The position numbers and the translations under genes are program-made. Of a stretch of DNA of 32,287 nt, positions 4,001 through 32,287 are shown one piece after another; position 1 is the first letter of the stretch; each line of letters opens with the position of its first letter. This DNA comes from a virus. Under the pieces are notes generated by a model. It was not told the origin of the DNA. It ran no database searches and worked only from the letters and a program-made list of their open reading frames with translations. The stretch covers positions 1 to 32,287 of IMG/VR virus record IMGVR_UViG_3300046516_001133. The stretch is one strand, 5' to 3'.

Positions 4001-4080
4001 GAATCTCTGGCAGCAAGGATGTGATTGCCAACTACGCTCCCCGCGAGAACAAGTGGTTCATCACGGCCGTGGACTGTTAG
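1066..4080 (+). CDS. Large virion structural protein, tail hub/baseplate-like
   Basis: A 1004-residue protein with strong Shine-Dalgarno TAGGAG at 1055-1060, five bases before the ATG and overlapping the previous stop. The N-terminal third contains a VDPREIL segment (about residue 84), a GGPLNYRGV region and a helix with LLELIAQACEDGGCDFFVEL (about 193-212). This order is familiar from large structural proteins of big myoviruses, where the last helix resembles the gpD/gp27-type hub domains of contractile tails. The C-terminal half has a KEQSLKQNAVLAANRTAKAF helix and Trp/Gly/Asn-rich beta sequence ending in WFITAVDC. No signal peptide or membrane segment is seen. The match is by pattern recognition. 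Tail or baseplate location is an inference, and structural nature is the safer statement. Confidence 0.65.
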   Translation: MSFTQATFLGASIRGFTSSIGWNVGQPSQLSIALVEDPANGDLFAPVPVGTPIFFTVGSFNFFGLLQKHERRNDVNGLPVYDVVCVDPREILDGAQVVIAGYNGSVGSIPNLFNAYGWWEDAANGGFGGSLANDAGIPWTKVRDAVVAMANQPFVGTYGGPLNYRGVTYSLDLSEVPSPPIYYRVGGNNVSLLELIAQACEDGGCDFFVELRGFTIRVRTVSRATQPPLGTITALVNTNTGNVVRSSSGIEARHEVTSSFLVGGEVTTLYQSNSVQAFWGFDIVGNPIVSVDGTFDLKDAAGNISSSVATEFMNLNAQPVADIIGQTDYPCSLLEMRMAKCNLNTWSSFMIHQRKSMADRIGLTTLTTIKNMGANGNVRKQDMVNDERGNAIAQAKLALISDLFAKVTRMYEYVKGFADEAMGRRFLVPLPFILRNVDPETLRVESSYDVAEGGFLPDGSAPLGLSDLNQDIFRLQDGRFRCFVEFDNIQGADLSHVNPQGTAIEGNTLFMEAQVASQIVFNPGPYAIVALQSPVFEEASDFTGDKNLLAAAHQLAPAVFQDMVLKSQYGSLGIRVQPALRYPDAAAIPLKSNILQYGPWFAAGAAGKVKFDQDPTLTPWNYGGWDFMNLAGAARVNQAVTNMTISEAGQVELAGAPTVSLGDVLQTSGPNVTNIDVSYGTQGVTTTYRFQTFTPRYGVFNRNLGERLKRMGLISQGLGRSVRAAFKEQSLKQNAVLAANRTAKAFMENAPKQVKKESPYDVLVGYSEADPSGMTRIGLSAMTYEEAIPLSNADDDSAFQATGMMSFSGLLRPFCTAPGNGLLMPSYATPSVTGAIANVATLDPWKGYNDVEVYAWGNTYQGLHAQRRNATGANARPLALRGPVVISGWGFDWQGNAVPGPGSGAAWDADTLTRSDKWRVGPLDPLWDASRGVWTCHGTARGQTQSVIAASGSGSLKLYDPNGLTNELLTVWNWSRGTGISGSKDVIANYAPRENKWFITAVDC

Positions 4081-4134
4081 TCCGGACATTCGGACATGTC
4101 CGGATGCAGTCGGACAAAGTTGCCGTCGGTCCGG
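4081..4134 (+). repeat. CGGACA repeats forming alternative hairpins
   Basis: Directly after the stop codon of the large structural gene, CGGACA occurs at 4083-4088, 4091-4096 and 4111-4116. Bases 4091-4102 are a perfect 12-base palindrome (CGGACATGTCCG). TCCGGACA (4081-4088) can also pair with TGTCCGGA (4097-4104), so two mutually exclusive folds exist. No T-run follows, so it does not look like a standard terminator. It may be an operator, a processing site or an mRNA stabiliser between two structural genes. Confidence 0.5.
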
Positions 4135-11807: not shown

Positions 11808-12668
11808 TTACTTGGTGTTGGAGACGACCTCGGTCACGCCGAGAGTTCCAGTCTTCCAGGGAGTCCTGTTGTGAAAGGTATTGTCCCAAGCGTGGTAGAC
11901 GGCGTGATTGATAGCCACTCCCTCATCCCACCTGGCCTGGGTGATGACGTTGGGTTTGGGGCTGTAGTAGCACGTCTTCCCGCCATGGAACTGGTGCAGG
12001 CTCACGCCCTCAGAAATGACTTGCTTGAACCCTGGCAGACACCGGGCTCGTCGGACGAAGTCAGAGTCTTCCGCTGAGATGCCGCCGAAGTACCGCTCGT
12101 CGTAGCCGTTCAGCTTCTCCCAGACCGCCCTGGTGGCGAGACAGATGTAGTTGGTGACGTCAGACCGGTAGGCCTTGCTTTGGAGAGGCCACCGCCGGCA
12201 CTCGCCAACTAGGCCTGGCGTCAGGTTCTGCCCGTAGGGGTCGAGGAGGTCCAGGTACTGCTGGGGAACGTCGTAGGTGGTGGACATCACCATGGCGTGC
12301 TCGCCATCACAATCGGCGATTAGCCGGTCGTAGACGTTGTCCCAAGCAATGACCTCATTCCCCTGTTGGAAGATCAGGTCGCCAGTGCTATGGCGGAAGG
12401 CAATGTTATTCGTTAGGCAAGGATTGTTGTGGAACTTCTCGATGCCAGTCTTGAACACGAACTCGCTGACGTCCACGCGGATGAACTTCCACGGGAAACG
12501 TGCAGAAAACGTGCGAAGTTCGCCAAGCACATCTTCGTGGGAGCCGTCGTCGGCTACCACGACTTCAAAAGGGCAAGTGGGTGGTCTCGTCGCAATGGAC
12601 CACAAGGCCCGGCGAAACAGTGGGAGCCTGTTGTGGCTGCTGATGATGATTGAGACTTTCTGGGTCAT
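11808..12668 (-). CDS. Family 2 glycosyltransferase
   Basis: 286 residues. The GT-A fold opening VSIIISSHNRLPLFRRAL and the nucleotide-binding ADDGS (about 38-42) are typical of GT2. The C-terminal half has NGYDERYFGGISAEDSDFVRR, matching the acceptor/catalytic (ED) region of galactosyltransferase-like GT2 enzymes. It transfers an activated sugar in the cytoplasm, and no membrane anchor is seen. ATG 12668 has AAGGA upstream. Its 5' end lies inside the 3' end of an HNH endonuclease gene (104-base overlap), suggesting the endonuclease was inserted at this start. The acceptor is unknown. Confidence 0.75.
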   Translation of the reverse strand: MTQKVSIIISSHNRLPLFRRALWSIATRPPTCPFEVVVADDGSHEDVLGELRTFSARFPWKFIRVDVSEFVFKTGIEKFHNNPCLTNNIAFRHSTGDLIFQQGNEVIAWDNVYDRLIADCDGEHAMVMSTTYDVPQQYLDLLDPYGQNLTPGLVGECRRWPLQSKAYRSDVTNYICLATRAVWEKLNGYDERYFGGISAEDSDFVRRARCLPGFKQVISEGVSLHQFHGGKTCYYSPKPNVITQARWDEGVAINHAVYHAWDNTFHNRTPWKTGTLGVTEVVSNTK

Positions 12669-13284
12669 TATAATTTCCTTCGCACAACTCGCCGTGCTTA
12701 CTGTTTTCTTCGCACCACTGATAGAACTGGTTCTTGTCAAGTCCAGTCTTGGAAAATAGGTATAGTGCAATCCGCAAGACCGTCGCCACGAACAACCCAT
12801 GTGAAAACGAGTTCTTCATGATTTGGACAATTTTGTGAATCCACTGGAAGTTGGTGGCGGCGTAGCCAACTGCCGACTCGATCCTGTCTGGAGAAGCGGT
12901 GTATCTTCCGGCCTGAACATCGTCTGGGCTTTTGGGAAACGCAAGAGTTAAACCCGTGTACGTGCATAGCCCATTTTGTTCACTAATCTGTAATGCCGCC
13001 TCTTCTGGTGTCAGATCAAATGGGATGTTCTTGTTTCTTGCCCTTGTAGTAAGTCTTGACCAGACAGTGTTGATGATTGGGCCTGCAATGGGGATATTGC
13101 CACCACGGATGGACTTTGCCTCATACACGCCGTACTTAATTCCCCTTTGCCTTATTATGTTTACAGAGCACTCTAGGCGTTTGGCCTGCTCCGCAATCGT
13201 GAGACCCTGGTTCTGAACAGACCTCAGGGCAGCTTCGTCGATATGAGAGAATCTGGTCCTGTTTTGCGAACGAGTCCCGAACAT
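12565..13284 (-). CDS. HNH-type endonuclease with N-terminal HTH (1 of 4)
   Basis: 239 residues. The N-terminal part (about 14-60) looks like a helix-turn-helix (GLTIAEQAKRLECSVNIIRQ). The nuclease-like core reads CTYTG then ASPDRIESAVGY and NFQWIHKIVQIMK, the same series of motifs as in the HNH proteins at 14324 and 16301. The ATG overlaps the upstream glycosyltransferase stop as TAATG. The last 34 or so residues are encoded within the downstream glycosyltransferase gene and show no conserved pattern, so the natural C-terminus may have been replaced by read-through. It is probably a free-standing homing endonuclease. Activity is inferred. Confidence 0.65.
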   Translation of the reverse strand: MFGTRSQNRTRFSHIDEAALRSVQNQGLTIAEQAKRLECSVNIIRQRGIKYGVYEAKSIRGGNIPIAGPIINTVWSRLTTRARNKNIPFDLTPEEAALQISEQNGLCTYTGLTLAFPKSPDDVQAGRYTASPDRIESAVGYAATNFQWIHKIVQIMKNSFSHGLFVATVLRIALYLFSKTGLDKNQFYQWCEENSKHGELCEGNYNDPESLNHHQQPQQAPTVSPGLVVHCDETTHLPF

Positions 13285-14327
13285 TACACGAGCCCCTTCA
13301 ACAACTCGCCTTTCACCTTCAATACGCGAGTTGATTCGGTTGGTAATCCAAGGTGGTCAAACATAAGTGTGACCCGATCAAAGTAAGTGTGGTCTAACAG
13401 TACCTTGCGACGCCCCGCGTCGATGAATCGCTGACGAAGTTCCGGGCATTCGACGAAGTGACGAATCATCCCTGCCATCTGGCTCGGGCTCTCAGCCATA
13501 GGGAGTTCCTCTTCAGTGAAGAGGTCACGAGCTTCAGGCACGTAGTCGGAGACGCAGAAGCCACCAGCTGCGAGCACCTTGAAGGGGCGTTCAATGACGT
13601 CCCATCCCAGGTCCGTGCTGTGGGGCTCAGACACGTTGGGGCACACGGTGGCCGACACGAAGAGGTCGCGAACATCGTGGTTCTCGATGCCGCCCAGGTA
13701 CTTCTCCGTGGGCCAGGGGGAGTTGCCGAAGACCTTCACATTGAGGCCGCTGTCGGGATGGCACAAAGGCAGGATGTAGTTGTTGAGGTTCCGGGCCTTG
13801 TAGGGCCAGTAACCGCCAACGAAAGCGACGTCACAGACGAGTTCCGGACGGACCTGGCCACCGAGGTAGTCGAACGTGTCCGCGGCATTCAGGATGCCCA
13901 CGGGCTCAATTCCGATGTCACGCCAGCCAGACATGGTGCCTTCGAGCCACTTGTCGTGAGCGTGGATGAAGACGAAGTCCGGCCTCCCGGTTTCCTTCTT
14001 GAGCTTCTCGACGAGTCGCTTTTCCTGCTCAGTGGCAACCACGAGCGAATACTTCTTCGGGTCCACGTCCTTGAGGTAAGGCCCCCACGCTGACGCGAAG
14101 AGGATGACCCTCATGTTCGGCCGAGACACGATGTTCTTGTACGTGGCACGATCCAGGTCGTACGTAGTCCCAATGAACAATTGTGGATCGGTGGCCGAGA
14201 ACGCATCGAATGCCGGAGTGCTTTGTTTCCAAAAGGTAAAGTTGTGTCCGCACGCTTTGAAAACACGCCCCCATCCAGTTCTCACGTAAGACGGGCCGGC
14301 ATCAGTATATATGCAAAGGACATTCAT
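13284..14327 (-). CDS. CgeB-like glycosyltransferase
   Basis: 347 residues from ATG 14327, which overlaps the upstream HNH stop as ATGA. The sequence has CDVAFVGGYWPYK, then NVKVFGNSPWP, then a C-terminal domain with RPFKVLAAGGFCVSDYVPEARDLF and a final helix with HTYFDRV. This order is characteristic of CgeB/Glyco_trans_1_2 GT-B proteins, which use the C-terminal domain to bind a nucleotide sugar. No Tat or Sec leader is present. The gene lies among other glycosyltransferases and probably adds one sugar in the same glycan. An in-frame N-terminal extension is rejected because it lies in the HNH gene. Confidence 0.75.
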   Translation of the reverse strand: MNVLCIYTDAGPSYVRTGWGRVFKACGHNFTFWKQSTPAFDAFSATDPQLFIGTTYDLDRATYKNIVSRPNMRVILFASAWGPYLKDVDPKKYSLVVATEQEKRLVEKLKKETGRPDFVFIHAHDKWLEGTMSGWRDIGIEPVGILNAADTFDYLGGQVRPELVCDVAFVGGYWPYKARNLNNYILPLCHPDSGLNVKVFGNSPWPTEKYLGGIENHDVRDLFVSATVCPNVSEPHSTDLGWDVIERPFKVLAAGGFCVSDYVPEARDLFTEEELPMAESPSQMAGMIRHFVECPELRQRFIDAGRRKVLLDHTYFDRVTLMFDHLGLPTESTRVLKVKGELLKGLV

Positions 14328-14908
14328 GATTGTTCTCTTTGATTGTGGAGGGTTACTTTGCAGCACCAAGAGATGAAGTCGTGGTCAAGTTGGTCAGACT
14401 TCATTTCGTTGATGACTTTGTGTACCCACTGGATGTTGCCGGATACATAGCCGAGGCTAGAATCCTTGCGATCCAACGACGCTGTCTGAAGGCCACGCTG
14501 CATGTCAGCAGCAATGGTCAGCGTTAGTGGCTCTCCTGAAAGAGCACACTTACCGCCTTGGAGTGTGAATTGATTCCAAGCCTCTTCCTGCGTTATCGTG
14601 AACGCGAGATTTCGGCGAGCAGCACCGTACTTGAGGCTGAACCAGTAAGAGCCGTTGATTTGCTCGAAGTGTCGTCCTGATTGTGCCCTTTTCACTTCAC
14701 CAAGTAGACAGCCACAGCTTTTAACTCCACGCTTCTTGTTGGTCAGTCGGCTTGTATAGGTAACAAACGGGTCGGAGTTGTTGCACTCACAAGAACATTC
14801 CCATTGGTACTCATGAGTGTCCTCCCTCACGCCGAGCATCTTACGGACTGTGAGTTTGCCGAAGTGTTTGCCGACCAGATCAACTTTCGGGCCTGTTGGC
14901 TTCCTCAT
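14324..14908 (-). CDS. HNH-type endonuclease (2 of 4)
   Basis: 194 residues. The N-terminal part has GKHFGKLTVRK, then a CSCECNN and SCGCLL pair of Cys clusters, a DNA-binding zinc module typical of this phage HNH group. The core reads GGKCALSGEPL, SLDRKDSSLGY and GNIQWVHKVINEMK. It closely parallels the proteins at 12565 and 16301, so the genes are paralogues. ATG 14908 comes three bases after the small membrane gene's stop, with TGGAAA before it. The stop overlaps the CgeB-like glycosyltransferase start as ATGA. It is probably a free-standing homing endonuclease inserted at that start. Activity is not shown. Confidence 0.7.
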   Translation of the reverse strand: MRKPTGPKVDLVGKHFGKLTVRKMLGVREDTHEYQWECSCECNNSDPFVTYTSRLTNKKRGVKSCGCLLGEVKRAQSGRHFEQINGSYWFSLKYGAARRNLAFTITQEEAWNQFTLQGGKCALSGEPLTLTIAADMQRGLQTASLDRKDSSLGYVSGNIQWVHKVINEMKSDQLDHDFISWCCKVTLHNQREQS

Positions 14909-15635: not shown

Positions 15636-16316
15636 TCAATGGCTTGGAAGGAAAATCTTCTCGGCTTCTGCGATGTCGTTGGAAGTGTCGATTTCGACCA
15701 GCTGAAGCTTTTTGGTCTGGCAGGCCCAGAGTTCGCCTCCGCGGTCGATAACCTCGTTCAAGGCCTCGTATCCGAAGTGGCGGCGACGATGCTTTTCGGC
15801 GAGGGCCGCACAGAACAGGCTGCGTTCGTTCGGCTGGAGCAGTGCGACGTGGCACCACTTGACCGGGAGACCGAAGCTGAAGTGGGTGACCTTGTTGTCG
15901 AACATGGTGACGCCGACTTCTTCTTCCCGAACGCCCTGGCGTGAGTCGATCAGGACACCGGAGCGTCCAGAGCCCATTGCGGCCAGGGCTTCCAGGTTGA
16001 ACACCAAGTCACCGTAGACGACCAGGACGGGAACGGTAGGAGGGATTGTCCGGAGCCCGATGGATACGGAGTAAGCGACGTTGGTCGTTTCGTAGTAGGG
16101 GTTTAGGACGAGACGGACGTCCTTGGGAAGAACTTCTCGGAGACGATGAGCCTCGAAGCCGGCCACCACGGTGATTTTCACACGGGGGAACGCTTCGCGA
16201 ACGAGCCGGATCTGGCGTTCGATCAGGGTTTCACCCTGAAGGTTGATGAGTGCCTTCGGTCCGTAGCTCTTCATTCGACGACCGAGGCCGGCGGCGGGAA
16301 TCAGGACGTGGAGCAT
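15636..16316 (-). CDS. Sugar-phosphate nucleotidyltransferase
   Basis: 226 residues. The opening IPAAGLGRRMKSYGPKALI is the nucleotide-binding signature of NTP transferases (G-x-G-x-R and P-K-x-L). A VVYGDLVF segment holds the metal-binding Asp, and NPYYETTNVAYS is shared with LicC/HddC-like enzymes. It would couple a sugar-1-phosphate to a nucleotide and so supply the glycosyltransferases, probably using the product of the GHMP kinase. The base and sugar are undetermined. ATG 16316 has only a weak ribosome site and overlaps the end of an HNH gene by 16 bases, another sugar-gene start occupied by an endonuclease. Confidence 0.7.
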   Translation of the reverse strand: MLHVLIPAAGLGRRMKSYGPKALINLQGETLIERQIRLVREAFPRVKITVVAGFEAHRLREVLPKDVRLVLNPYYETTNVAYSVSIGLRTIPPTVPVLVVYGDLVFNLEALAAMGSGRSGVLIDSRQGVREEEVGVTMFDNKVTHFSFGLPVKWCHVALLQPNERSLFCAALAEKHRRRHFGYEALNEVIDRGGELWACQTKKLQLVEIDTSNDIAEAEKIFLPSH

Positions 16317-16939
16317 CTTTGTCGCTTTCTTTCACGAAGGATGCGTAGGCACCAACGAACCAGTTCGTCGTCGCTCATGTCTAGTCGCATGAGATTGACC
16401 CGCTTATGTACCCATCTGATGTTGCCTGGGATGTAGCCTTTGCTACTGTCGATGCGGTCAAGAGATGCCGTTTGAGTGCGTTTGCTTTGTTTGTTGCGAC
16501 GAGACAGGTGAAGGTGTCGGTCCATCCTAAGAGGGAGACCGGTGAGGGCACATTTGCCGCCCTGTTTAACGAATAGTTCCCAGGCATGCTCTATTGTGAC
16601 AGTGACCTCTAACTCGCGTGCCTTAGCGTTTCTCAGAACAACGTACCAATAAGTTCCAGATAGCTCGCCACAACCACGCCACCGTTGCTTATGGATCGTT
16701 TCGGTACGCTTGCATCCACAGCTTGTGGTGTTGTCGCTTGCTAGGTTTCCACGTTGAACAATACATATGTTGCCACAGTCACACTCACATCGCAGCAGGC
16801 TGAGTCGTTTTCCGCTGGGGCGTTGGTAATAGCCGCCGTGTCCAATGATTGTGAGGCGACCGAATCTTTTTCCAACCCACTTAGCTACGAACCTGGCTGT
16901 CGCTGATTCTCCTCTTGGCCTTCTCAAACGCTTTGGCAT
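16301..16939 (-). CDS. HNH-type endonuclease (3 of 4)
   Basis: 212 residues from ATG 16939. The N-terminal zinc module has GKRFGRLTIIG with CECDCGN and SCGCKR clusters. The core reads GGKCALTGLPL, SLDRIDSSKGY and GNIRWVHKRVNLM. It is paralogous to the 14324 protein. It overlaps the upstream glycosyltransferase 3' end by 59 bases and the downstream nucleotidyltransferase start by 16 bases, which suggests a compact intergenic insertion. An alternative GTG start at 16996 extends further into the upstream gene. Homing activity is inferred from the family. Confidence 0.65.
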   Translation of the reverse strand: MPKRLRRPRGESATARFVAKWVGKRFGRLTIIGHGGYYQRPSGKRLSLLRCECDCGNICIVQRGNLASDNTTSCGCKRTETIHKQRWRGCGELSGTYWYVVLRNAKARELEVTVTIEHAWELFVKQGGKCALTGLPLRMDRHLHLSRRNKQSKRTQTASLDRIDSSKGYIPGNIRWVHKRVNLMRLDMSDDELVRWCLRILRERKRQRCSTS

Positions 16940-17687
16940 AACACTTGTTCCATACTTCTTTTGAGACGGTGCTTGATGAACTGTGCTCGCCAACACGGAT
17001 GGTTACCAAAGATTCTGCTATGTGGGTCAACACAAACCGTTCCGAGATTCTGAGCCACAAATCATAGTCTTCTACCACTCTCATGGACTCATCGAACGTG
17101 CCACAATGGGCAAACGCTAGCTTGGAGATGACCGAGTCGCAGTTGACGATGCACTCCCTAACCAGTCGCTCACGGTTGAACGGTTCCTTCCACTGGCGAA
17201 GCCTGAGTCCTCCGCTGTTGACCGTGTCGTAGTCGGAATAGACCACGCCGACTATTTCCGGGACCTTCAGGAACTCCTGGATCGACCGGGAAATCTTCGT
17301 CGGTGCGTAGGTGTCGTCGGAGTCCAGGAACGCGAAGAAGTCGCTTGTGTGCCAGTGGGCTTCGATGCCGCGGTTGCGGGAGAAACTGGGACCGTGGCCG
17401 CGAGTGAACCTCAGCAGGAGAAGCTCGATGTCCGTATTCACAAGCTTGCCGATGACGATGTCTGGCTCTTCAACCATTCCCTTGGCCTTACCAGTCCGCG
17501 GCCGGTACAGACGCTTCACCACCGAGTCAGACGAGCCATCCTTGGACCCGTCATCTACCAGAACGATCCGTAGCTTGTCGTGCGGATAATCCTGGTACTT
17601 GATCGAGTCGATGGCGTCGTTAATCCACTGGACGTGGTTGTGACAAGGAATGACGACCGTCACCAGAGGCTTTACGCTTTCGGGCAT
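16881..17687 (-). CDS. Family 2 glycosyltransferase
   Basis: 268 residues. TVVIPCHNHVQWINDAI and VLVDDGSKDGS are the GT2 opening. FLDSDDTY holds the DxD metal-binding site (about residues 130-135), and VVEDYDLWLRI is the catalytic ED-region helix. These make it the most complete GT2 of the island. ATG 17687 is preceded by GAAGGAAG. It overlaps the upstream gene by 16 bases, and the HNH gene covers its last 59 bases. The final residues SDSQVRS look non-conserved, so the end may have been altered by the insertion. Donor and acceptor are not predictable. Confidence 0.8.
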   Translation of the reverse strand: MPESVKPLVTVVIPCHNHVQWINDAIDSIKYQDYPHDKLRIVLVDDGSKDGSSDSVVKRLYRPRTGKAKGMVEEPDIVIGKLVNTDIELLLLRFTRGHGPSFSRNRGIEAHWHTSDFFAFLDSDDTYAPTKISRSIQEFLKVPEIVGVVYSDYDTVNSGGLRLRQWKEPFNRERLVRECIVNCDSVISKLAFAHCGTFDESMRVVEDYDLWLRISERFVLTHIAESLVTIRVGEHSSSSTVSKEVWNKCYAKAFEKAKRRISDSQVRS

Positions 17688-19302: not shown

Positions 19303-20321
19303 GACTCGCTCCTGTAAATGACTTGGGCCGCTTCTTCGAGCACCCGGTTCCAGTTCTCCACGAACTTCCCCATAGAGAAGCGTTCGACGACCGTCTTGCG
19401 TGCGGCCTGGCCCAGCTTCCGGCAGAGTCCGGCATCTTCCAGCAGCATTCGGCAGTATCCGGCAAGCTCGGCCGGATCGTTGGAAAGGAAGCCGTTGACG
19501 CCGTTCTCGATGATTTCCAGAATCATGCAGTTAGCGGTGGATACTACTGCACAACCACACGACATAGCCTCGAGCAATGCGGTGGGCACCGGGGAAATCA
19601 ACGACGTGTTCACAAAGACTGTGGACTCGCGATAGCGGTTGACGAGTTCCGCCACGCTCCGGGCCGGCTCAGACAGTCCAGGGGTAGCTCCAACCACGAA
19701 GGTAGGCAGCCCGTTGGTGACTTGCTTCCACAGCTTGAAGCCACAGCACCAGTCCCGGTTCATCCAGTCGTTGACCACCGAGAGCAGGTGGCTCTTCTTG
19801 GTGACGACCGCGTCCAGCGGCTTGAATCGGTCCGTGTCGATGCCGTGGTGAACGACCTGGGCCTCGTCCGCTCCCCACCCCCAGGCTTCCCTGCTGAACT
19901 CAGAAATGAAAACGTTGATGTCGCCTCTCATCCCCTTGAGTTGTTCGACTTGGGCTGGCGACCAGGACGAATGCGGTAGCGTGTGCTCCAGGCTCACCAG
20001 GGGCAGGTGATGGACGCTGGCCACCTGTTTCGCCAGCTGGAACTGACCGAACTTGTTCTGGCTCAGCACCAGATCGAAGTCGAGTTCGGGTGGGATCTGC
20101 TTGTCGCCGCGGTCGGGGTTGAGAAGGACATGGTTCGCCGGAAGAGGAGCGTAGATCGGGTTCCAGTCCTTAACAGATGGTGTTCGTACCATGTAGAACA
20201 CAGCGTTGGTCTTGGCCAATCCCGACTGGTATCTTTCGTGCGTGGGAAAGGTCAGAACGTTTAGTGGTTCTCCAGGTTGTCTGGTGGCTGCCCTTACGAT
20301 GCTACCGATAGGTGATGGCAC
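19299..20321 (-). CDS. Family 4 glycosyltransferase
   Basis: 340 residues. GTG 20321 is preceded by AAAGGAG at a five-base spacing, a strong ribosome site. The GT-B layout is clear: VHHGIDTDRF (about residue 160) starts the donor-binding half and PVPTALLEAMSCGCAVV (about 243-260) is the GT4 signature. It probably adds one sugar of the glycan using a nucleotide donor. No membrane anchor is present. The start overlaps the end of an HNH-AP2 gene by 28 bases, the fourth sugar-gene start occupied by an endonuclease. Its stop overlaps the next gene as TTGA. Confidence 0.8.
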   Translation of the reverse strand: MPSPIGSIVRAATRQPGEPLNVLTFPTHERYQSGLAKTNAVFYMVRTPSVKDWNPIYAPLPANHVLLNPDRGDKQIPPELDFDLVLSQNKFGQFQLAKQVASVHHLPLVSLEHTLPHSSWSPAQVEQLKGMRGDINVFISEFSREAWGWGADEAQVVHHGIDTDRFKPLDAVVTKKSHLLSVVNDWMNRDWCCGFKLWKQVTNGLPTFVVGATPGLSEPARSVAELVNRYRESTVFVNTSLISPVPTALLEAMSCGCAVVSTANCMILEIIENGVNGFLSNDPAELAGYCRMLLEDAGLCRKLGQAARKTVVERFSMGKFVENWNRVLEEAAQVIYRSES

Positions 20322-20797
20322 AGGTTCTCCTTTGGGAAGTTCAGTTTGGCAAACTGGCCAAATAGCTCTAAGGCCTTAGTGTCGTAGGCCCTTGCTGCGA
20401 CAAGTTCGTCATCGAAAGTGCCTATATGCACTTGCTTGTAGTTCAAAACGATGGTCACACGCCAAAGCGACCGTCTTTTCTCCCACGAGACGCCCTTGTA
20501 ACAAGAAGAGCACCGTTCCCTTTTCTTCTGGTTGCAGGTGTTCTGTTGATTATTGCACAGCCTTAAATTCTTCCTTGTGCAATCGTGCCTGCATCCATTT
20601 CGATGGTCAACAAGTGGCACTCGTTTTGGCAGACCGAGCAAGTACCTATGTAGGTACACTTTGCGTTGGCAGCCGAAGTATCCATAGACGTAACGGGTCT
20701 TCTTGTTTATGTACCACTTGATCCCGAGAAGGCTCTCGTAATCATCGTCATCGACAAGTGCCATAACCGGAGAGTTCTCGAGCCGAAGCTGCCGCAC
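20294..20797 (-). CDS. HNH-AP2 homing-type endonuclease (4 of 4)
   Basis: 167 residues from GTG 20797, chosen because AAAGG lies eight bases before it and it comes one base after the upstream stop (TAAAGTG). A TTG at 20845 is an alternative. Order of domains: a VDDDDYESLLGIKWY opening, HRYLLGLP, the HNH core (VDHRNGCRHDCTRKNLRLCN), a CSSCYKGVSWEK stretch, then an AP2-like DNA-binding region (WRVTIVLNYKQVHIGTFDDE and AARAYD). This HNH plus AP2 layout is well known for phage homing endonucleases. It is a different family from the other three HNH genes, and its 3' end overlaps the GT4 start. Confidence 0.8.
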   Translation of the reverse strand: MRQLRLENSPVMALVDDDDYESLLGIKWYINKKTRYVYGYFGCQRKVYLHRYLLGLPKRVPLVDHRNGCRHDCTRKNLRLCNNQQNTCNQKKRERCSSCYKGVSWEKRRSLWRVTIVLNYKQVHIGTFDDELVAARAYDTKALELFGQFAKLNFPKENLCHHLSVAS

Positions 20798-20798
20798 T

Positions 20799-21209
20799 TT
20801 ACAGGCCTTTACTGTTCGCAATTGTTGTGTGGAAACATTTGTCAAAACCGCACGGCGGGAGCGTGTAGGGGCTCGACACCGGCAGTCCGAGTTCCAGACG
20901 AATCTCTTCGAGTCGTTTGCTGAAGACGTTCAGCCAGAAGTACAGTTCGCTACTGTAGACGTGAGGGTGATAGAAGAACTCAACTATTTCGCCCTCGTGT
21001 TGCCCCCAGATGCCGAGGTTCGGGGGATGCTCTTTACGAACAACCGAAATGTGGGCCGCGTACAATTGACGATTGGTCGGAACCCACTTTGGTATGAGCG
21101 AACGATAATAGCTCGTAAGCCCTTCATCGATTTCGACAATGAGCTTGAGGCCACCTTGAGGCCCCACGCAATAGCGGAGTGTACCCGAGGATGAATGGAG
21201 AACTTCCAC
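20799..21209 (-). CDS. 2H phosphoesterase-like protein
   Basis: 136 residues. Two H-x-[ST] motifs, HIS (53-55) and HTT (127-129), are the catalytic pair of 2H phosphoesterases, which process 2',3'-cyclic or 2'-5' RNA ends. Around them NRQLYAAHISVVRKE and GFDKCFHTTIAN match a phage branch of the family. The GTG start at 21209 has GGAG about 11 bases before it, a weak but usable spacing. It overlaps the neighbouring upstream frame by 226 bases. It lies one gene away from a P-loop kinase, suggesting RNA end repair. The substrate is not known. Confidence 0.65.
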   Translation of the reverse strand: MEVLHSSSGTLRYCVGPQGGLKLIVEIDEGLTSYYRSLIPKWVPTNRQLYAAHISVVRKEHPPNLGIWGQHEGEIVEFFYHPHVYSSELYFWLNVFSKRLEEIRLELGLPVSSPYTLPPCGFDKCFHTTIANSKGL

Positions 21210-26402: not shown

Positions 26403-26436
26403 TTCCGTGGTGACTCCGGCCCACTACGCCACGGAA
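26403..26436 (-). repeat. Inverted repeat across polymerase C-half stop
   Basis: TTCCGTGG (26403-26410) and CCACGGAA (26429-26436) are a perfect 8-base inverted repeat with 18 bases between them. The stop codon of the polymerase C-half (26424-26426) lies in the loop. No T-run follows, so termination is not claimed. It could regulate the passage into ssb or be chance. Confidence 0.4.
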
Positions 26437-28124
26437 ATGTTTGCTTGCCATACCTTCTTGACTAGCAGGCCTGTCGAATCCTTCTTACCGGTGTCACGCT
26501 CGGCCTGCATGATGACCGTGTTGCCTTCTGTCAGGACGCTTGAGTATTCCTTCCAGGTCTCTGGGAAACAGATAACGTCGTCCACAGAGCAGGAAGCGTC
26601 CGCGATAGTAAGGAACGCCATCTTCGACCCAGGAGCCTTGCCCTTCTTCGTCTTGACCTCTCGGACCTGCTGCACTTCCACACCGAACATCAGGAAGCCG
26701 GTGCGACCAGCGAGGTATTCCTTACATGACACGTTCACCTGGCTGATGTCACAGGCGTCGATCTTTGAGCAGGAAATGGAGATGCCCAGAAGCTCCTCCT
26801 CAACCCACGCAATCCAATGCGGCGTGTCTTCCAGGCTGGCGGGCGGATGTTCCAGTAGGTAGACCTGACTGTTAACTGAGGACACGCGGTTCTTGTTCGA
26901 GCAGCCGCCGCCTTCCTTTTTCGGTCGTCCCACTCCCTTCATAGCTTCGATCAGGTCGCTAAACCCATCGCGGAACATCCCGGTGCCAGCGTGCGTCTCA
27001 CTAATCCATTCCCGTTCCTTATCCGTCAGGGACGACCAGGCCTTGAACTCAGCGACCATCCTTTGCCTGCTCATGGGGAGCCAACGCAATGCACCGACCT
27101 CAATCAGACTGACGATGACGTTGGACGGTAACCGAGACGCAACGCGAAGCAGGAAGTCAAACCAGGACCACTCTTTCAGTGCCTTCCCGATCTGCTGTTC
27201 TGCTTCTGCAACAACGTCGCGAAGCTTCTTGATCTGAGCCTCGCCGACGCCCTTAATGTCCGACAGCCCGAACTTCACCGTCTTGCGGTCGGTGTGGAAG
27301 AACCGCTCCAGGCTACGCAGATCCGGGGCCTCAACCACGATGTCGAATAGCCTGGCATCATTCACAAGCTCGAAACGCTCCTGTTGTGGACCGTCCTTGC
27401 TTCGCTTGTGACGAGCGTTGTAGAGCCAGCTGGTGAAGAACGCGACGGGGAAGTGGGCCTTGATGTAGGCACACTCGTAGCCCGTCATCCCATAGCACAT
27501 CGAGTGACTCTTGTTGAAGGAGTACCGTTGTGACTTCTCGATCCAACCGAAGATTTCCTCAGCTTGCTCCAGGGTCACCAGGCCCAGCCTGGCCGCACCT
27601 TCCGCGAAGAGCTTCTTGCACTTCGCCATCTCGACAGGGAGCTTCTTGCCGATGGCCTTACGAAGCTGGTCTGCCTCTTGCAGATTGAACCCAGCAATGG
27701 CTTGTGCGATAGCCATAGCTTGTTCCTGGTACACCAACACTCCGTACGTTGGGAACAGGATCGGCTCAAGAGCGGGATGATAGAAGCTGACCGCCTCCTC
27801 CCCGTTCTTACGAAGCACATAGTGCTTGGTCATGCTGACGCCATGTTCGTCCACGGCCTTGAGGCAGCCGGGACGGAGCAGGGCACCGAGGGCACTCATG
27901 TGCTCAGCAGCTTCCGGCTTGAGCTTCCTCGACCACGTCTTGCCAAGGTTGCTTTCAAGCTGGAACACACCCTTGGTTTCACCGCGGCCGAGCAAAGCCC
28001 AGGTAGCCGGACAATCCTGGGGAGCCTTCTCGACATCGAAGTCCAGAAGCGGGATGACGTCCTTGGGTGGATTGTCTTCCAGCACTGGCCACTCGCAACC
28101 ACACGGAAACCGGTACGTCTTCAT
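26424..28124 (-). CDS. dnaE: DNA polymerase III alpha, C-terminal half (fingers to OB)
   Basis: 566 residues, the second half of a bacterial-type replicative polymerase. GVFQLES near residue 53, a LLRPGCL region, YGVLVYQEQ and FNKSHSMCYG are the fingers signatures. IKGVGEAQIKKL is the helix-hairpin-helix, and the last 150 residues have the OB-like region. It lacks the PHP and palm parts, which are in the gene at 29815. A short added N-terminus (MKTYRFPCGCEWPV, CxC) precedes the homology. The ATG overlaps the exonuclease stop (ATGA). It must assemble with the N-half to be active. No intein residues are seen at its start. Confidence 0.85.
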   Translation of the reverse strand: MKTYRFPCGCEWPVLEDNPPKDVIPLLDFDVEKAPQDCPATWALLGRGETKGVFQLESNLGKTWSRKLKPEAAEHMSALGALLRPGCLKAVDEHGVSMTKHYVLRKNGEEAVSFYHPALEPILFPTYGVLVYQEQAMAIAQAIAGFNLQEADQLRKAIGKKLPVEMAKCKKLFAEGAARLGLVTLEQAEEIFGWIEKSQRYSFNKSHSMCYGMTGYECAYIKAHFPVAFFTSWLYNARHKRSKDGPQQERFELVNDARLFDIVVEAPDLRSLERFFHTDRKTVKFGLSDIKGVGEAQIKKLRDVVAEAEQQIGKALKEWSWFDFLLRVASRLPSNVIVSLIEVGALRWLPMSRQRMVAEFKAWSSLTDKEREWISETHAGTGMFRDGFSDLIEAMKGVGRPKKEGGGCSNKNRVSSVNSQVYLLEHPPASLEDTPHWIAWVEEELLGISISCSKIDACDISQVNVSCKEYLAGRTGFLMFGVEVQQVREVKTKKGKAPGSKMAFLTIADASCSVDDVICFPETWKEYSSVLTEGNTVIMQAERDTGKKDSTGLLVKKVWQANISVA

Positions 28125-28792
28125 GCCGCGGGTGTCCTTGCACAGCAGTTCTTGAACTTGATGAACTTGCCCTGGCCGTCCTTGCCAGGACGCATTCCGA
28201 GAGTTCGATAGAGACTCAGAAAGCGAACCATCAATTCGCCGGTTTGGCGAACGTCCACGAGAGCATCGTGGGCACCTTCCAATGAAAGGCCGAAGTACGC
28301 ACGAACGGTGTCGAGCTTCTCGTTGACAAGCTCTTCATTCCATCGGAACCATCTGAAGAGGTCGTCCTTCAGGTCGTAGTCGCGATAGGTGTTGAACAGA
28401 AGCGTCTTGTCCTTCTTCGGGCCGTGCTTCTTGTTCAGAACATTCACAAACGCTGAATCGAAATTGCGAATGTTGTAACCTGCCGCGATTGGTGCCCCGA
28501 AGGTGTTTCTCTTCAGGTTGAAGCGATTCACCCACTCGACGAACGAAAGCCACGCGGCCTTCTGGTCGGGAGCCTTGGCAAGCTCTTCACGAGTCTTGCC
28601 GTTCACCTTCAGAGCCCCGTCGTCCAGACGCTCCGGATGTTCCGGCTTCATCAGTGAGCAGAACTCGCCTTCCGGATACGGCTCCAGAGTTCGGCCGTTG
28701 TAGGCCTTGCCGGCAATCTGGATGGCTTCATGCCACCCAGCCTTGAGACCGCCCGTCTCAAAGTCATAAACAATGATGTCGAGAGTATTCAC
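28121..28792 (-). CDS. DnaQ-like 3'-5' exonuclease (DEDDh)
   Basis: 223 residues. Asp10 and Glu12 (DFETGG), Asp112 (GYNIRNFD), His175 and Asp180 (HDALVD) make the DEDDh active site of DnaQ/RNase T nucleases. It would act as proofreader for the adjacent polymerase or as a nuclease in DNA turnover. GTG 28792 has AGAGAA before it. It ends as ATGA over the polymerase C-half start. The Cys-Cys pair near the end is not a known feature. Proofreading is inferred from position. The polymerase N-half also keeps the metal-binding residues of a PHP nuclease. Confidence 0.85.
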   Translation of the reverse strand: MNTLDIIVYDFETGGLKAGWHEAIQIAGKAYNGRTLEPYPEGEFCSLMKPEHPERLDDGALKVNGKTREELAKAPDQKAAWLSFVEWVNRFNLKRNTFGAPIAAGYNIRNFDSAFVNVLNKKHGPKKDKTLLFNTYRDYDLKDDLFRWFRWNEELVNEKLDTVRAYFGLSLEGAHDALVDVRQTGELMVRFLSLYRTLGMRPGKDGQGKFIKFKNCCARTPAA

Positions 28793-28812
28793 TTCTCTGT
28801 TCCGCTCCTGGG

Positions 28813-29232
28813 TTATTTGCAGTCACACTGGTCGTCGCAGGCCAAGGTCGTGTCGGCCTCGGACTCCTGCACTTCGGCCTCAACGATGGAGACCGTGATG
28901 GTCTGGCTGCCGTCGTCGTTGTTCTTGAACTCGAGGCTAAGCTCGTTGTTCTTGACCGAGTCGATGAGGTCTTTGCTGAGCGTTACGCTCCCGCCTGCCG
29001 CGATGACGAGTTGCGAAATGTACTCGGTTGCCGCCGCAGTCTCTTCCTGAAGCTTCTCGTGCATCAGGCGAACCGCGGTGATGAGCGATTCGTTTTCCTT
29101 GCCCTGGTCTTCCGCGGTGTCGGCCAGCCACTCTACGTCCTCCTTGAGTCGCTGAGTCTCTTCCGTCTGGGTCGAGAGACCAAGCTTCTTGCGGGCCGCG
29201 GTGAACAGCGACTTAACTTTCTCCAGCACCAT
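28813..29232 (-). CDS. Coiled-coil protein of unknown function, 139 aa
   Basis: The first 80 residues are helical with heptad-like spacing (RLKEDVEWLADTAEDQ and later), and a beta-rich stretch (SLEFKNNDDGSQTITVSIV) follows. The end is acidic with a final DDQCDCK cysteine cluster. ATG 29232 has AAAGGAG seven bases before it and overlaps the UDG-like gene by 20 bases. It lies between the two polymerase halves, so it may bridge or tether replication proteins, but that is speculative. No family is recognised. Confidence 0.6.
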   Translation of the reverse strand: MVLEKVKSLFTAARKKLGLSTQTEETQRLKEDVEWLADTAEDQGKENESLITAVRLMHEKLQEETAAATEYISQLVIAAGGSVTLSKDLIDSVKNNELSLEFKNNDDGSQTITVSIVEAEVQESEADTTLACDDQCDCK

Positions 29233-29788
29233 CGGACTTCTCCTTTACCTGTTTGAAAAACTCAACCGCCTGTTTGTCGGCCTTGCTTCCATGCGACAGA
29301 ACCCAACGCGGGCTATACCATGGAGCGACCAACGCTGACATGAACGGAACGTCGTGGAACTGACCGACGACGTCTTGCATTCGGAACGACGACTTCAACT
29401 TCAGCAGGAGACGTGTAGGGATCGGTCCCAACGTCACCACGACCCTTGGTGCTACTGCCTGAAGCTCCTTCCAAAGCCACGTCTTGCAAGCATTGATGTT
29501 GCACTGGTAGACGGCCTTGGCTGGGATCGGGAGGCACTTGACTGCGAGCGTGAGATACACGTCCGCGAGCCCAGCTTCCCTCAGTAGCTTCTTCAGTAAC
29601 CTTCCTTCGCGGCCCTCGAAGGGCCTACCCATGAGGTCTTCCTCGGCACCCGGCGTTTCTCCAACAATGACAACGCGAGAGTGTGGGTCGCCCGAGGGGC
29701 AGACGACCTGACTTGCACTGGGGCATTGGGTGTTGGGACGAAGGGGACAACGAGAGCAACCGCTGATCTGTTCAACGAGGTCGAGCAT
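29213..29788 (-). CDS. Family 4 UDG-fold protein with altered motifs
   Basis: 191 residues. Cys11, Cys14, Cys85 and Cys101 match the four ligands of the [4Fe-4S] cluster of family 4 uracil-DNA glycosylases. Motif 1 is intact (GETPGAEED, 43-51, then GRPFEG). Motif 2, normally His-Pro-[SA], reads Ser159-Pro160-Arg (WYSPRWVL), and the Asn before the Val-Lys-Cys strand is replaced by Leu81. The protein may therefore bind uracil or damaged DNA without cutting it, or use another residue. ATG 29788 has AAAGGA upstream. Its place in the replication block, between polymerase halves, suggests a DNA-quality role. Confidence 0.75.
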   Translation of the reverse strand: MLDLVEQISGCSRCPLRPNTQCPSASQVVCPSGDPHSRVVIVGETPGAEEDLMGRPFEGREGRLLKKLLREAGLADVYLTLAVKCLPIPAKAVYQCNINACKTWLWKELQAVAPRVVVTLGPIPTRLLLKLKSSFRMQDVVGQFHDVPFMSALVAPWYSPRWVLSHGSKADKQAVEFFKQVKEKSDGAGES

Positions 29789-29814
29789 ACCATCCTTTGC
29801 CGGAAGTCAAGGGA

Positions 29815-31737
29815 CTAAAGCTTGCCGGTACGAATGACGCTTTCAGCACCCATGATGCAGTCAAGCGTGCGGAGTCCAAGGATGTCAAACTTAACCAGGC
29901 CGAGTTCCTCAGCGTCTCTCATATCCACGCCGACCATTAGCTGCTCGCTGCTTTTGTCCCAGACCATCGGAACAATGTCGGCCAGGGGCTCTGACGAGAT
30001 GATGACACCACTGGCGTGCTTGCTCATGTTCCGCTTCGTGCCTTCAAGGCGAATCGCCTGAGCAAACCGCGGCCCCATTGGACCGTCTAGCTCGCCGTCG
30101 TCCTTAAAGAAGGCCCACTGCTTGAGAGACTCGGGGTTGTTTTCAAGAGCCCACTGGATGATCGAGGCCTCGCCGGTCTCTTCCATCATTTCCTGTAGCT
30201 CGTCGGCAATCTCATGCTCATCGGGAATGAACTCAGTGATTTTGTTCATCTCTTCGTAGGAGCACTCTTCCCAGGCCCGTAGCACATCCTTGAGGGCACC
30301 ACGGCCCTGCATGCGGCTGAAGGTGGCCATCTGGCAGACCTTGTCGTAGCCGTACTTCTGGCGAATGTACTCGATCACCTTTTCGCGAATCGCGATGGGG
30401 AAGTCTGAGTCGATATCTGGCAGAGCCACACGCCCAGGGCTATTACGACCAGCGTTGTAGAACCGCTCGAATAGGAGGTCGTTGAGGATGGGATCGACGC
30501 GGGTGATGCCAGTTAAATACGCGAGAAAGCTTCCTCCGGCCGAACCGCGACCCTTGCCGGTCTTCGACTTGAGAACCTCCGTCGCGTAACGAATGATGTC
30601 TTGCTTAATGAGGAAGTAGCTGGAAAGACCAGCCTCGGTGATGACCGGGTATTCCTTGTCGTAGAGGCGGGCGTGGTACTCGGGCAGCTTCTTCGCCGAC
30701 ACCTTGCCGGCAACCTTCTTCGCCCAGCCTTGCTCGCACAGCTTCATGAGGTACTGGTCAGGAGTGAGCCCGTCAGGACAGCCGAACTGCGGCAGCATTG
30801 GCTTGCCACCGACGCTGTATGTCTCACAGCGTTTCGCTATCTCGACCGCCCCATCGAGTTCTTCCTGCTCATGGATGTCCTTCATCTCCTCAAGCGACGG
30901 AATGTGGTAGTTGTTCGAGCGGAAGAAGGCCCCGAGCCCAACTTCCTCTGCGGCGTCCAGCTTTCGCTGAACTTCCTTCATCGTGGTTTCCAACGAGGAG
31001 CACAGGAGAACACGTTGGTCGTTCGCGTCGTCTTTGCGACAGTAGTGGGAGTCAGCAGTCGCAACTCTAGGAATCCCAAGCAGTTTGGCACAGAAGCGAA
31101 GGATGCGGGCTACCACCAACGCAGCCGGAAGGTTAGCCTGGTCGATCAGTTGGATTTCGACCCAGAAGTTCTCTTTGCCGAAGATCCGTATGTACCGAGA
31201 CATCTCGGCAAGCACGGCCTCTTTCCAATCCTTGCGAACGAGAGACTTGGCTTCCTCGTACGACTTCGCGTCGTAGGCCAGCTTCGGTTCCAAAAAGCAA
31301 ACGTTCGCCAGGTCCGAGCCCATGTGTCCGCTGAAGACAATGAACTCGCCCTTGCCGAATGCCGCCAGACGCTCCAGGTTGAGCCGAGGCTTCTTGTATG
31401 AGAACTCGGGGCGGTAACTAGCAGAGGATGCCTGGATGAGATTCTTCCAGCCCCGTTGACTCTTGGCGAGCACACACAAGTGACTCATGGTGCCATTGGT
31501 CCGGTCACGGACCATTGCGTCCTGCTGGCAGATGTAGAACTCGCTGCCGAGGATGGCCTTCAGGCCCTTCTTGGTCATAGCCTTGAGGAAGGCGGGGCAG
31601 CCCGCGATAGAACCATGGTCCGTAAGGGCACAGCCCTCCAAACCAAGTTCCTTGATTCGGTCAGCAATCTGCTCTGGCTTTGACAGTCCATCCAGTAGGC
31701 TGAAGTGACTGTGAGTGTGAAGCGGGAACCAGGACAT
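29815..31737 (-). CDS. dnaE: DNA polymerase III alpha, N-terminal half (PHP and palm)
   Basis: 640 residues, the first half of a bacterial-type replicative polymerase. The PHP part has HTHSH (7-11), TDHG (Asp40, His41), Glu66, His86, His138 and Asp229/His231, the metal ligands of an active PHP nuclease. The palm has GRGSAGGS (397-403), the catalytic PDIDSDF (Asp441, Asp443) and the third Asp618 in KFDILGLRTL. It stops 22 residues later (GKL), before the fingers, which are encoded at 26424. ATG 31737 has AGGGG eight bases before it. The tandem structured element ends 23 bases upstream of this ATG. No intein signature occurs at the end. Confidence 0.9.
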   Translation of the reverse strand: MSWFPLHTHSHFSLLDGLSKPEQIADRIKELGLEGCALTDHGSIAGCPAFLKAMTKKGLKAILGSEFYICQQDAMVRDRTNGTMSHLCVLAKSQRGWKNLIQASSASYRPEFSYKKPRLNLERLAAFGKGEFIVFSGHMGSDLANVCFLEPKLAYDAKSYEEAKSLVRKDWKEAVLAEMSRYIRIFGKENFWVEIQLIDQANLPAALVVARILRFCAKLLGIPRVATADSHYCRKDDANDQRVLLCSSLETTMKEVQRKLDAAEEVGLGAFFRSNNYHIPSLEEMKDIHEQEELDGAVEIAKRCETYSVGGKPMLPQFGCPDGLTPDQYLMKLCEQGWAKKVAGKVSAKKLPEYHARLYDKEYPVITEAGLSSYFLIKQDIIRYATEVLKSKTGKGRGSAGGSFLAYLTGITRVDPILNDLLFERFYNAGRNSPGRVALPDIDSDFPIAIREKVIEYIRQKYGYDKVCQMATFSRMQGRGALKDVLRAWEECSYEEMNKITEFIPDEHEIADELQEMMEETGEASIIQWALENNPESLKQWAFFKDDGELDGPMGPRFAQAIRLEGTKRNMSKHASGVIISSEPLADIVPMVWDKSSEQLMVGVDMRDAEELGLVKFDILGLRTLDCIMGAESVIRTGKL

Positions 31738-31759
31738 TTCGCTTGCCCCTGAAAGATGT

Positions 31760-31817
31760 AGCTTAGCGAGAACAGGTACGCTTGCGGTGCAGCAAGAAGA
31801 TGAACGCTCGCTAAGCT
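31760..31817 (-). ncRNA. Structured element copy B, upstream of polymerase start
   Basis: A perfect 11-base inverted repeat (AGCTTAGCGAG, 31760-31770, and CTCGCTAAGCT, 31807-31817) encloses 36 bases that hold an inner CTTGC/GCAAG stem. It shares most of its interior with the element at 31828-31883, while the outer stems differ but still pair. It covers the stop of the upstream gene and ends 23 bases before the polymerase ATG. It may be a cis-acting RNA such as an operator or antiterminator. Confidence 0.6.
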
Positions 31818-32287
31818 GCTGTTTGTTGGTCGTGAGAAGAGGTATGCTCGCGGTTACCCGCAAGAACATTGTCGCTCACGACCTTGGCTTTGGTGTTCTG
31901 CCAGATGAATTTCATGACTTTGTCGGCCTTCTTCATCACGTCACGGTGAATCTGATGTTGTGCATCCGTAAGCTTTGCCCAACCACCCTTCCCAATCTTC
32001 ACGCCTTCTTTCTTGCAAAGGGCCTTGGTGATTGTTTTCGTGTACCAGTGATAGAACTCGGAACGCATCATGCGGCCGTAGCCATGAGCATAGTTGCCGA
32101 TCTGCCGACGAAACTCGCGGAAACCCCTACCCTCTTTTAGTACTTCGATAGCCACCAAGACAAACCGTCCCAGTTGCTTCCGATAGCTCTTGTCGCTGCC
32201 GATGAAATAGTCACGCATTTCTGCGGGGTACGTGCGGAGATACTGCTTGGCCAGGTTACCCGTCTTTTCACCGTCGTGGGCACGCCG
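31811..32287 (-). CDS. Unidentified protein, 5' end outside window
   Basis: The frame stays open to the window edge, so about 158 residues are visible and the ATG at 32218 may be internal (the sequence before it, KTGNLAKQYLRTYPAE, looks coding). It contains GYGRMMRSEFYHWYTKTI, a CKKEGVKIGKGGW stretch and a helix KADKVMKFIWQN, giving a basic, helical protein with no known family. Its last 25 or so residues (from KVVSDN) are encoded by the structured repeat and have no protein pattern, so the natural end may have been replaced. No function is proposed. Confidence 0.55.
   Translation of the reverse strand, partial: RRAHDGEKTGNLAKQYLRTYPAEMRDYFIGSDKSYRKQLGRFVLVAIEVLKEGRGFREFRRQIGNYAHGYGRMMRSEFYHWYTKTITKALCKKEGVKIGKGGWAKLTDAQHQIHRDVMKKADKVMKFIWQNTKAKVVSDNVLAGNREHTSSHDQQTAA
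31828..31883 (-). ncRNA. Structured element copy A, in 3' end of upstream gene
   Basis: A perfect 9-base inverted repeat (GGTCGTGAG, 31828-31836, and CTCACGACC, 31875-31883) encloses 38 bases. On the minus strand the inner stem CTTGCGG/CCGCGAG has one U-G pair and a GTAA (GNRA) loop. On the plus strand that pair would be a C-A mismatch, which favours an RNA transcribed with the operon. The interior is similar to copy B. It is also coding sequence for the end of the upstream protein. Confidence 0.6.

What the first reader, a model, noticed from the sequence alone, without database searches (positions are those of the whole stretch)
31760..31883. Tandem homologous stem-loops with compensating stem changes before the polymerase gene
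Two neighbouring elements (31760-31817 and 31828-31883) have interiors that align over about 36 bases (shared GAGAA-x-AGGTA-x-GCT-x-GCGGT and GCAAGAA). Their outer stems have different sequences but each pairs perfectly (11 and 9 bp), which is covariation. An inner-stem pair is U-G on the minus-strand RNA but C-A on the plus strand, so the RNA probably comes from the operon strand, and copy A has a GNRA loop. The pair ends 23 bases before the polymerase N-half start. A translational operator like that of T4 gene 43, a put-type antiterminator or an autonomous RNA are possible. I recognise no known class.
Basis: partly seen in the sequence, partly recalled or inferred. Interest (0 to 1): 0.85.

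Follow-up and report, generated by a model that had tools for sequence, protein, structure and literature searches.

The report
Orphan twin RNA hairpins before phage polymerase
Just before its DNA polymerase gene this phage carries two neighbouring, related hairpins whose stems changed sequence but still pair, so their shape looks preserved; no relative was found in any database searched, and what they do is a guess (most likely control of the polymerase messenger RNA).

Summary
The two stem-loops are real, at the stated coordinates. Each has a perfect outer stem (11 and 9 bp), a 10 x 10 nt unpaired internal loop and an inner hairpin. The interiors are similar. All four differences in the innermost 9 outer pairs are compensated on both sides (naive chance about 1e-4). 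That supports a conserved fold, but it rests on one pair of sister copies; the shuffle control cannot decide with two sequences (63 of 500 shuffles do as well).

No homologue was found: not elsewhere in the window, not upstream of dnaE in 37 related viral loci, not in 14 related records, not in Rfam, phages, plasmids, E. coli genomes, or pattern scans of IMG/VR and GTDB genomes.

One correction: the GNRA loop is in the 31828-31883 copy, not in 31760-31817. Copy B lies inside the end of the upstream open frame. The hairpins do not cover the dnaE ribosome site. Best guess: a protein-bound intercistronic mRNA element; function untested.

The parts
31760..31817 (-). Hairpin A: outer stem 31760-31770/31807-31817 (11 bp), internal loops 31771-31780 and 31797-31806 (10 + 10 nt), inner stem 31781-31785/31792-31796 (5 bp), hexaloop
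31828..31883 (-). Hairpin B: outer stem 31828-31836/31875-31883 (9 bp), internal loops 31837-31846 and 31865-31874 (10 + 10 nt), inner stem 31847-31853/31858-31864 (7 bp with one U-G on minus), GUAA loop on minus
31735..31759 (-). Leader and start codon of the dnaE N-half: AGGGG Shine-Dalgarno-like stretch and ATG at 31735-31737, 22 nt after hairpin A
   Evidence: start MSWFPLH is shared with L002
29815..31737 (-). DNA polymerase III alpha, N-terminal half (PHP and NTPase domains)
   Evidence: Pfam PF02811, PF07733
31811..32287 (-). Upstream open frame (158 aa to the contig end, no family); codon signal runs to about 31868, so hairpin B lies in its C-terminal tail and its TAG stop lies in the outer stem of hairpin A

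Best explanation
The pair is a tandem cis-acting RNA element on the minus-strand operon transcript, between the upstream gene and dnaE. Each hairpin presents the same largely unpaired 10 x 10 nt internal loop (5' CGNNNAUNUU / 5' CRUACCUSUU), closed by conserved GAG/CUC and CUUGC/GCRAG flanks; the distal stem only has to pair. The most likely mechanism is recognition of the two internal loops by a protein, phage-encoded or host, that controls dnaE translation or the stability of the mRNA. Shown: the two predicted folds, the compensated stem differences, their position, and (by computation) that the hairpins themselves do not hide the dnaE ribosome site. Inferred: that RNA rather than DNA is the active form, that a protein binds, and that dnaE is the target.
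For: Two related copies with compensated outer-stem changes while the loop-proximal sequence is kept; strong folding; all clear genes from about 5 kb to the end of the window run on the minus strand, so a minus RNA is expected to cross the site; U-G pair and GNRA loop on that strand; 22 nt before the dnaE start; no terminator-like site. The internal loops are not complementary in either copy, so palindrome-perfecting mutation alone would not explain perfect outer stems beside kept, unpaired loops.
Against: Only two sister copies exist and the shuffle control cannot decide with two sequences. No homologue upstream of dnaE in 37 relatives, including the two nearest at 65-69% identity. The ribosome site is as open with as without the hairpins (0.40 against 0.37). 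Plus-strand folding is nearly as good. Copy B lies in an open frame with coding signal, so translating ribosomes would open it.
Confidence: 0.4

Rival explanations
1. Intercistronic mRNA processing or stability site: a double-strand-specific RNase (RNase III type) cuts the hairpins or they block exonucleases, separating the upstream message from the dnaE message.
For: Long perfect stems, position between two genes, tandem copies, no T run; the ribosome site is left open.
Against: Such sites need no conserved 10 x 10 internal loop; here loop-proximal sequence is kept better than the distal stem.
Confidence: 0.2
2. DNA-level element: a small palindromic insertion, or a hairpin read on single-stranded DNA (primase, replication or recombination signal), duplicated in tandem.
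For: Inverted repeats fold nearly equally on both strands; copy B lies inside an open frame; the dnaE-proximal spot in relative L002 holds an ORF of a putative mobile-endonuclease family that also has copies in this window; replication genes surround it.
Against: No further copy in the window, in 14 related records, or in the collections scanned, unlike dispersed palindromic elements; no target-site duplication seen by eye; the U-G pair fits RNA better.
Confidence: 0.22
3. Autonomous functional RNA: a ligand-binding or self-cleaving RNA of a new class, in two domains.
For: Conserved unpaired internal loop in compact tandem domains, no Rfam match even at permissive threshold.
Against: No phylogenetic spread at all; no expression platform seen; the internal loop differs at 6 of 20 positions between the copies.
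Confidence: 0.08
4. No present function: a local duplication of one palindrome, kept paired by template-switch mutation.
For: No homologues anywhere; two copies 10 nt apart; the 4 compensated changes could stem from few mutational events.
Against: Template-switch repair would tend to make the internal loops complementary too, which they are not; several separate compensations would be needed.
Confidence: 0.1

Closest known systems
T4/RB69 gene 43 translational operator
   Same: RNA hairpin a short way upstream of a phage DNA polymerase start codon
   Different: The T4 hairpin operator is 18 bases with a UAAC loop and the operator continues into the ribosome site (PMC3014915); here two 56-58 nt hairpins with 10 x 10 internal loops, and a DnaE-type, not family B, polymerase
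HK022 put RNA
   Same: About 70-nt structured phage RNA with two stem-loops and sequence-similar paralogues (putL, putR)
   Different: put lies downstream of early promoters and its two different stems form one V-shaped unit (PMC9378689); here two homologous hairpins stand side by side between two genes, and no sigma-70-like promoter was found nearby
T7-type RNase III processing hairpins (from my own knowledge)
   Same: About 60-nt hairpins with an internal loop between phage genes
   Different: No conserved large 10 x 10 loop is needed there; cleavage was not testable
Palindromic repeats such as REP elements and Rickettsia palindromic elements (from my own knowledge)
   Same: Short palindromes, one of them inside an open frame
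   Different: Those are dispersed in many copies; here only two copies, side by side

Membership tests
T4 gene 43-type operator | short hairpin with UAAC/CAAC-type loop | tested here: not met
   loops are UGCACC and GUAA; 58- and 56-nt hairpins (PMC3014915)
T4 gene 43-type operator | binds the polymerase and represses its translation | not testable with these tools
   needs binding and reporter assays
HK022 put RNA | lies downstream of an early promoter | tested here: inconclusive
   no sigma-70-like promoter within 31400-32287; the contig ends 400 bp upstream
HK022 put RNA | suppresses terminators through the RNA polymerase zinc-binding domain | not testable with these tools
   needs a transcription assay
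Any Rfam 15 family | covariance-model score at or above the gathering score | tested here: not met
   no match in the window; only chance matches at permissive threshold
Intrinsic terminator | G+C-rich hairpin followed by a T run | tested here: not met
   none found at 31400-32287
Dispersed palindromic element (REP, MITE, RPE) | many dispersed copies | tested here: not met
   only the two tandem copies; none in 14 related records

The most novel reading that the evidence does not exclude
A new class of small structured phage RNA, a hairpin with a conserved 10 x 10 nt internal loop used in tandem, that controls a DnaE-type phage polymerase.
Probability: 0.2. Interest if true: 0.65.

Novelty: new variant of a known kind. 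Interest (0 to 1): 0.36.

Why it matters
Control of DnaE-type polymerases in phages is, to my knowledge, little studied compared with T4 gene 43. If the pair is a protein-bound operator, it would give a compact RNA-protein module and a way to test feedback control in these phages. As it stands it is an orphan element known from one contig.

Tried and rejected
The first pattern had one N too many and is void; it was corrected. The first covariance model R1 had a shifted structure and was not used; R2 is correct. A GTDB genome pattern scan gave 5 chance-like matches without good outer stems. blastn against phages, plasmids and E. coli genomes: nothing beyond chance. Upstream open frame: no relatives in phages or IMG/VR or in the fetched loci, and no family. 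A pseudoknot between CCUG of hairpin A and CAGG of the dnaE leader would have only 4 bp and is not kept in B, so it was dropped. A C-G to G-C change at position 3 of the two loop strands was considered as an extra pair; with 2 x 4 changed positions one such coincidence is expected by chance. Searches by bacterial phylum with R2 were not possible.

Full report
Observation. Reading the sequence and folding it confirm two hairpins at 31760-31817 (A) and 31828-31883 (B). Both have a perfect outer stem (11 and 9 bp), two unpaired strands of exactly 10 nt each, and an inner hairpin (5 and 7 bp). No shuffle of 200 folded as well on either strand. The 11-bp stem is the longest perfect inverted repeat with a loop up to 60 nt in the window. 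With thresholds that copy A meets, the shape occurs once in the window and 0.1 times on average in shuffles. The shared interior pattern occurs twice in the window and nowhere else in it.

Covariation. In the innermost nine outer pairs, four differ between the copies, and all four differ on both sides and stay paired. If four changes on one arm and four on the other were placed independently, the naive chance is 1/126 x 1/81, about 1e-4. In the gapped alignment there are three double changes and a paired 2-bp deletion, and sliding the partners destroys the pairing. The shuffle control has no power with two sequences (63 of 500 do as well). This is good evidence for a fold kept since the duplication, but it comes from one comparison.

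Strand. The inner stem of B has a U-G on the minus strand that would be C-A on the plus strand, and B has a GUAA (GNRA) loop only on the minus strand. All clear genes from about 5 kb to the contig end lie on the minus strand, so minus-strand transcripts are expected. A folds slightly better on the plus strand, so the strand is likely, not settled.

Context. Downstream is the N-terminal half of a DnaE-type polymerase (PHP and NTPase domains), start ATG at 31735-31737, 22 nt after hairpin A. Its ribosome-site stretch has about the same computed openness with or without the hairpins (0.40 and 0.37), so simple occlusion is not the mechanism. Upstream is an open frame of 158 aa without family. Its codon signal continues to about 31868, so hairpin B overlaps its C-terminal end, and its stop lies in the stem of hairpin A. 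No terminator-like or sigma-70-like site was found at 31400-32287.

Relatives. Thirty-seven viral loci encoding DnaE relatives were fetched. The covariance model R2 finds the element in none of them, nor in 14 of the whole records, while it scores 77-79 bits on the window copies (these built the model). The two nearest relatives, L003 (69%) and L002 (65%), differ at this place: L002 has, just upstream of dnaE, an ORF of a putative mobile-endonuclease family also present in this window (no Pfam match), and L003 has about 280 nt without a clear gene. Rfam has no match. Pattern scans of IMG/VR and of GTDB genomes, and blastn against phages, plasmids and E. coli genomes, gave only chance-level matches.

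Mechanism. The anatomy, with sequence kept next to and in the internal loop and only pairing kept in the distal stem, is what one expects of a protein- or ligand-binding hairpin. Two copies in tandem just before dnaE suggest a cis-acting element of this mRNA, most likely protein-bound and acting on dnaE expression (confidence 0.4). Processing by an RNase, a DNA-level palindrome, an autonomous RNA, or an idle duplication remain possible. No tool here can test function.

Comparison. The T4/RB69 gene 43 operator is an 18/16-base hairpin with a UAAC loop (PMC3014915), and the HK022 put RNA is a two-stem unit near early promoters (PMC9378689). Neither form is matched, so it is not filed under either; working like one of them is not excluded.

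Verdict. A real, well-described orphan element; interesting as a lead, with unknown function and no phylogenetic support yet.

Noticed in passing
window 26424-31737: The DnaE-type polymerase is split into two separate genes (PHP + NTPase half, fingers + HHH half) with a uracil-DNA-glycosylase-like and an exonuclease-like gene between them; the split polymerase is also present in relatives L002 and L003.
   Followed up: partly
window 12565-13284, 14324-14908, 16301-16996; L002 4100-4852: A family of related ORFs (motif ASLDR-DS--GY--GN--WVHK--N-MK), probably mobile endonucleases, among glycosyltransferase-like genes; one sits upstream of dnaE in L002, near the place of the hairpins (no Pfam or NCBIfam match).
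   Followed up: partly
L003 4740-4835: Non-coding stretch upstream of dnaE with a tRNA-Arg(UCU)-like cloverleaf with a poor D arm, seen by eye; ARAGORN and Rfam do not report it.
   Followed up: partly
L002 11018-11091: tRNA with a four-base anticodon call (ctgt), i.e. an unusual anticodon loop.
   Followed up: no
window 4081-4104: Perfect 9-bp inverted repeat TCCGGACAT-TCGGAC-ATGTCCGGA directly after the stop of the large ORF 1066-4080.
   Followed up: no
window 20294-20845: ORF with weak AP2 and HNH_3 domain matches, both below Pfam's curated cut-offs; the make-up of a homing endonuclease.
   Followed up: no
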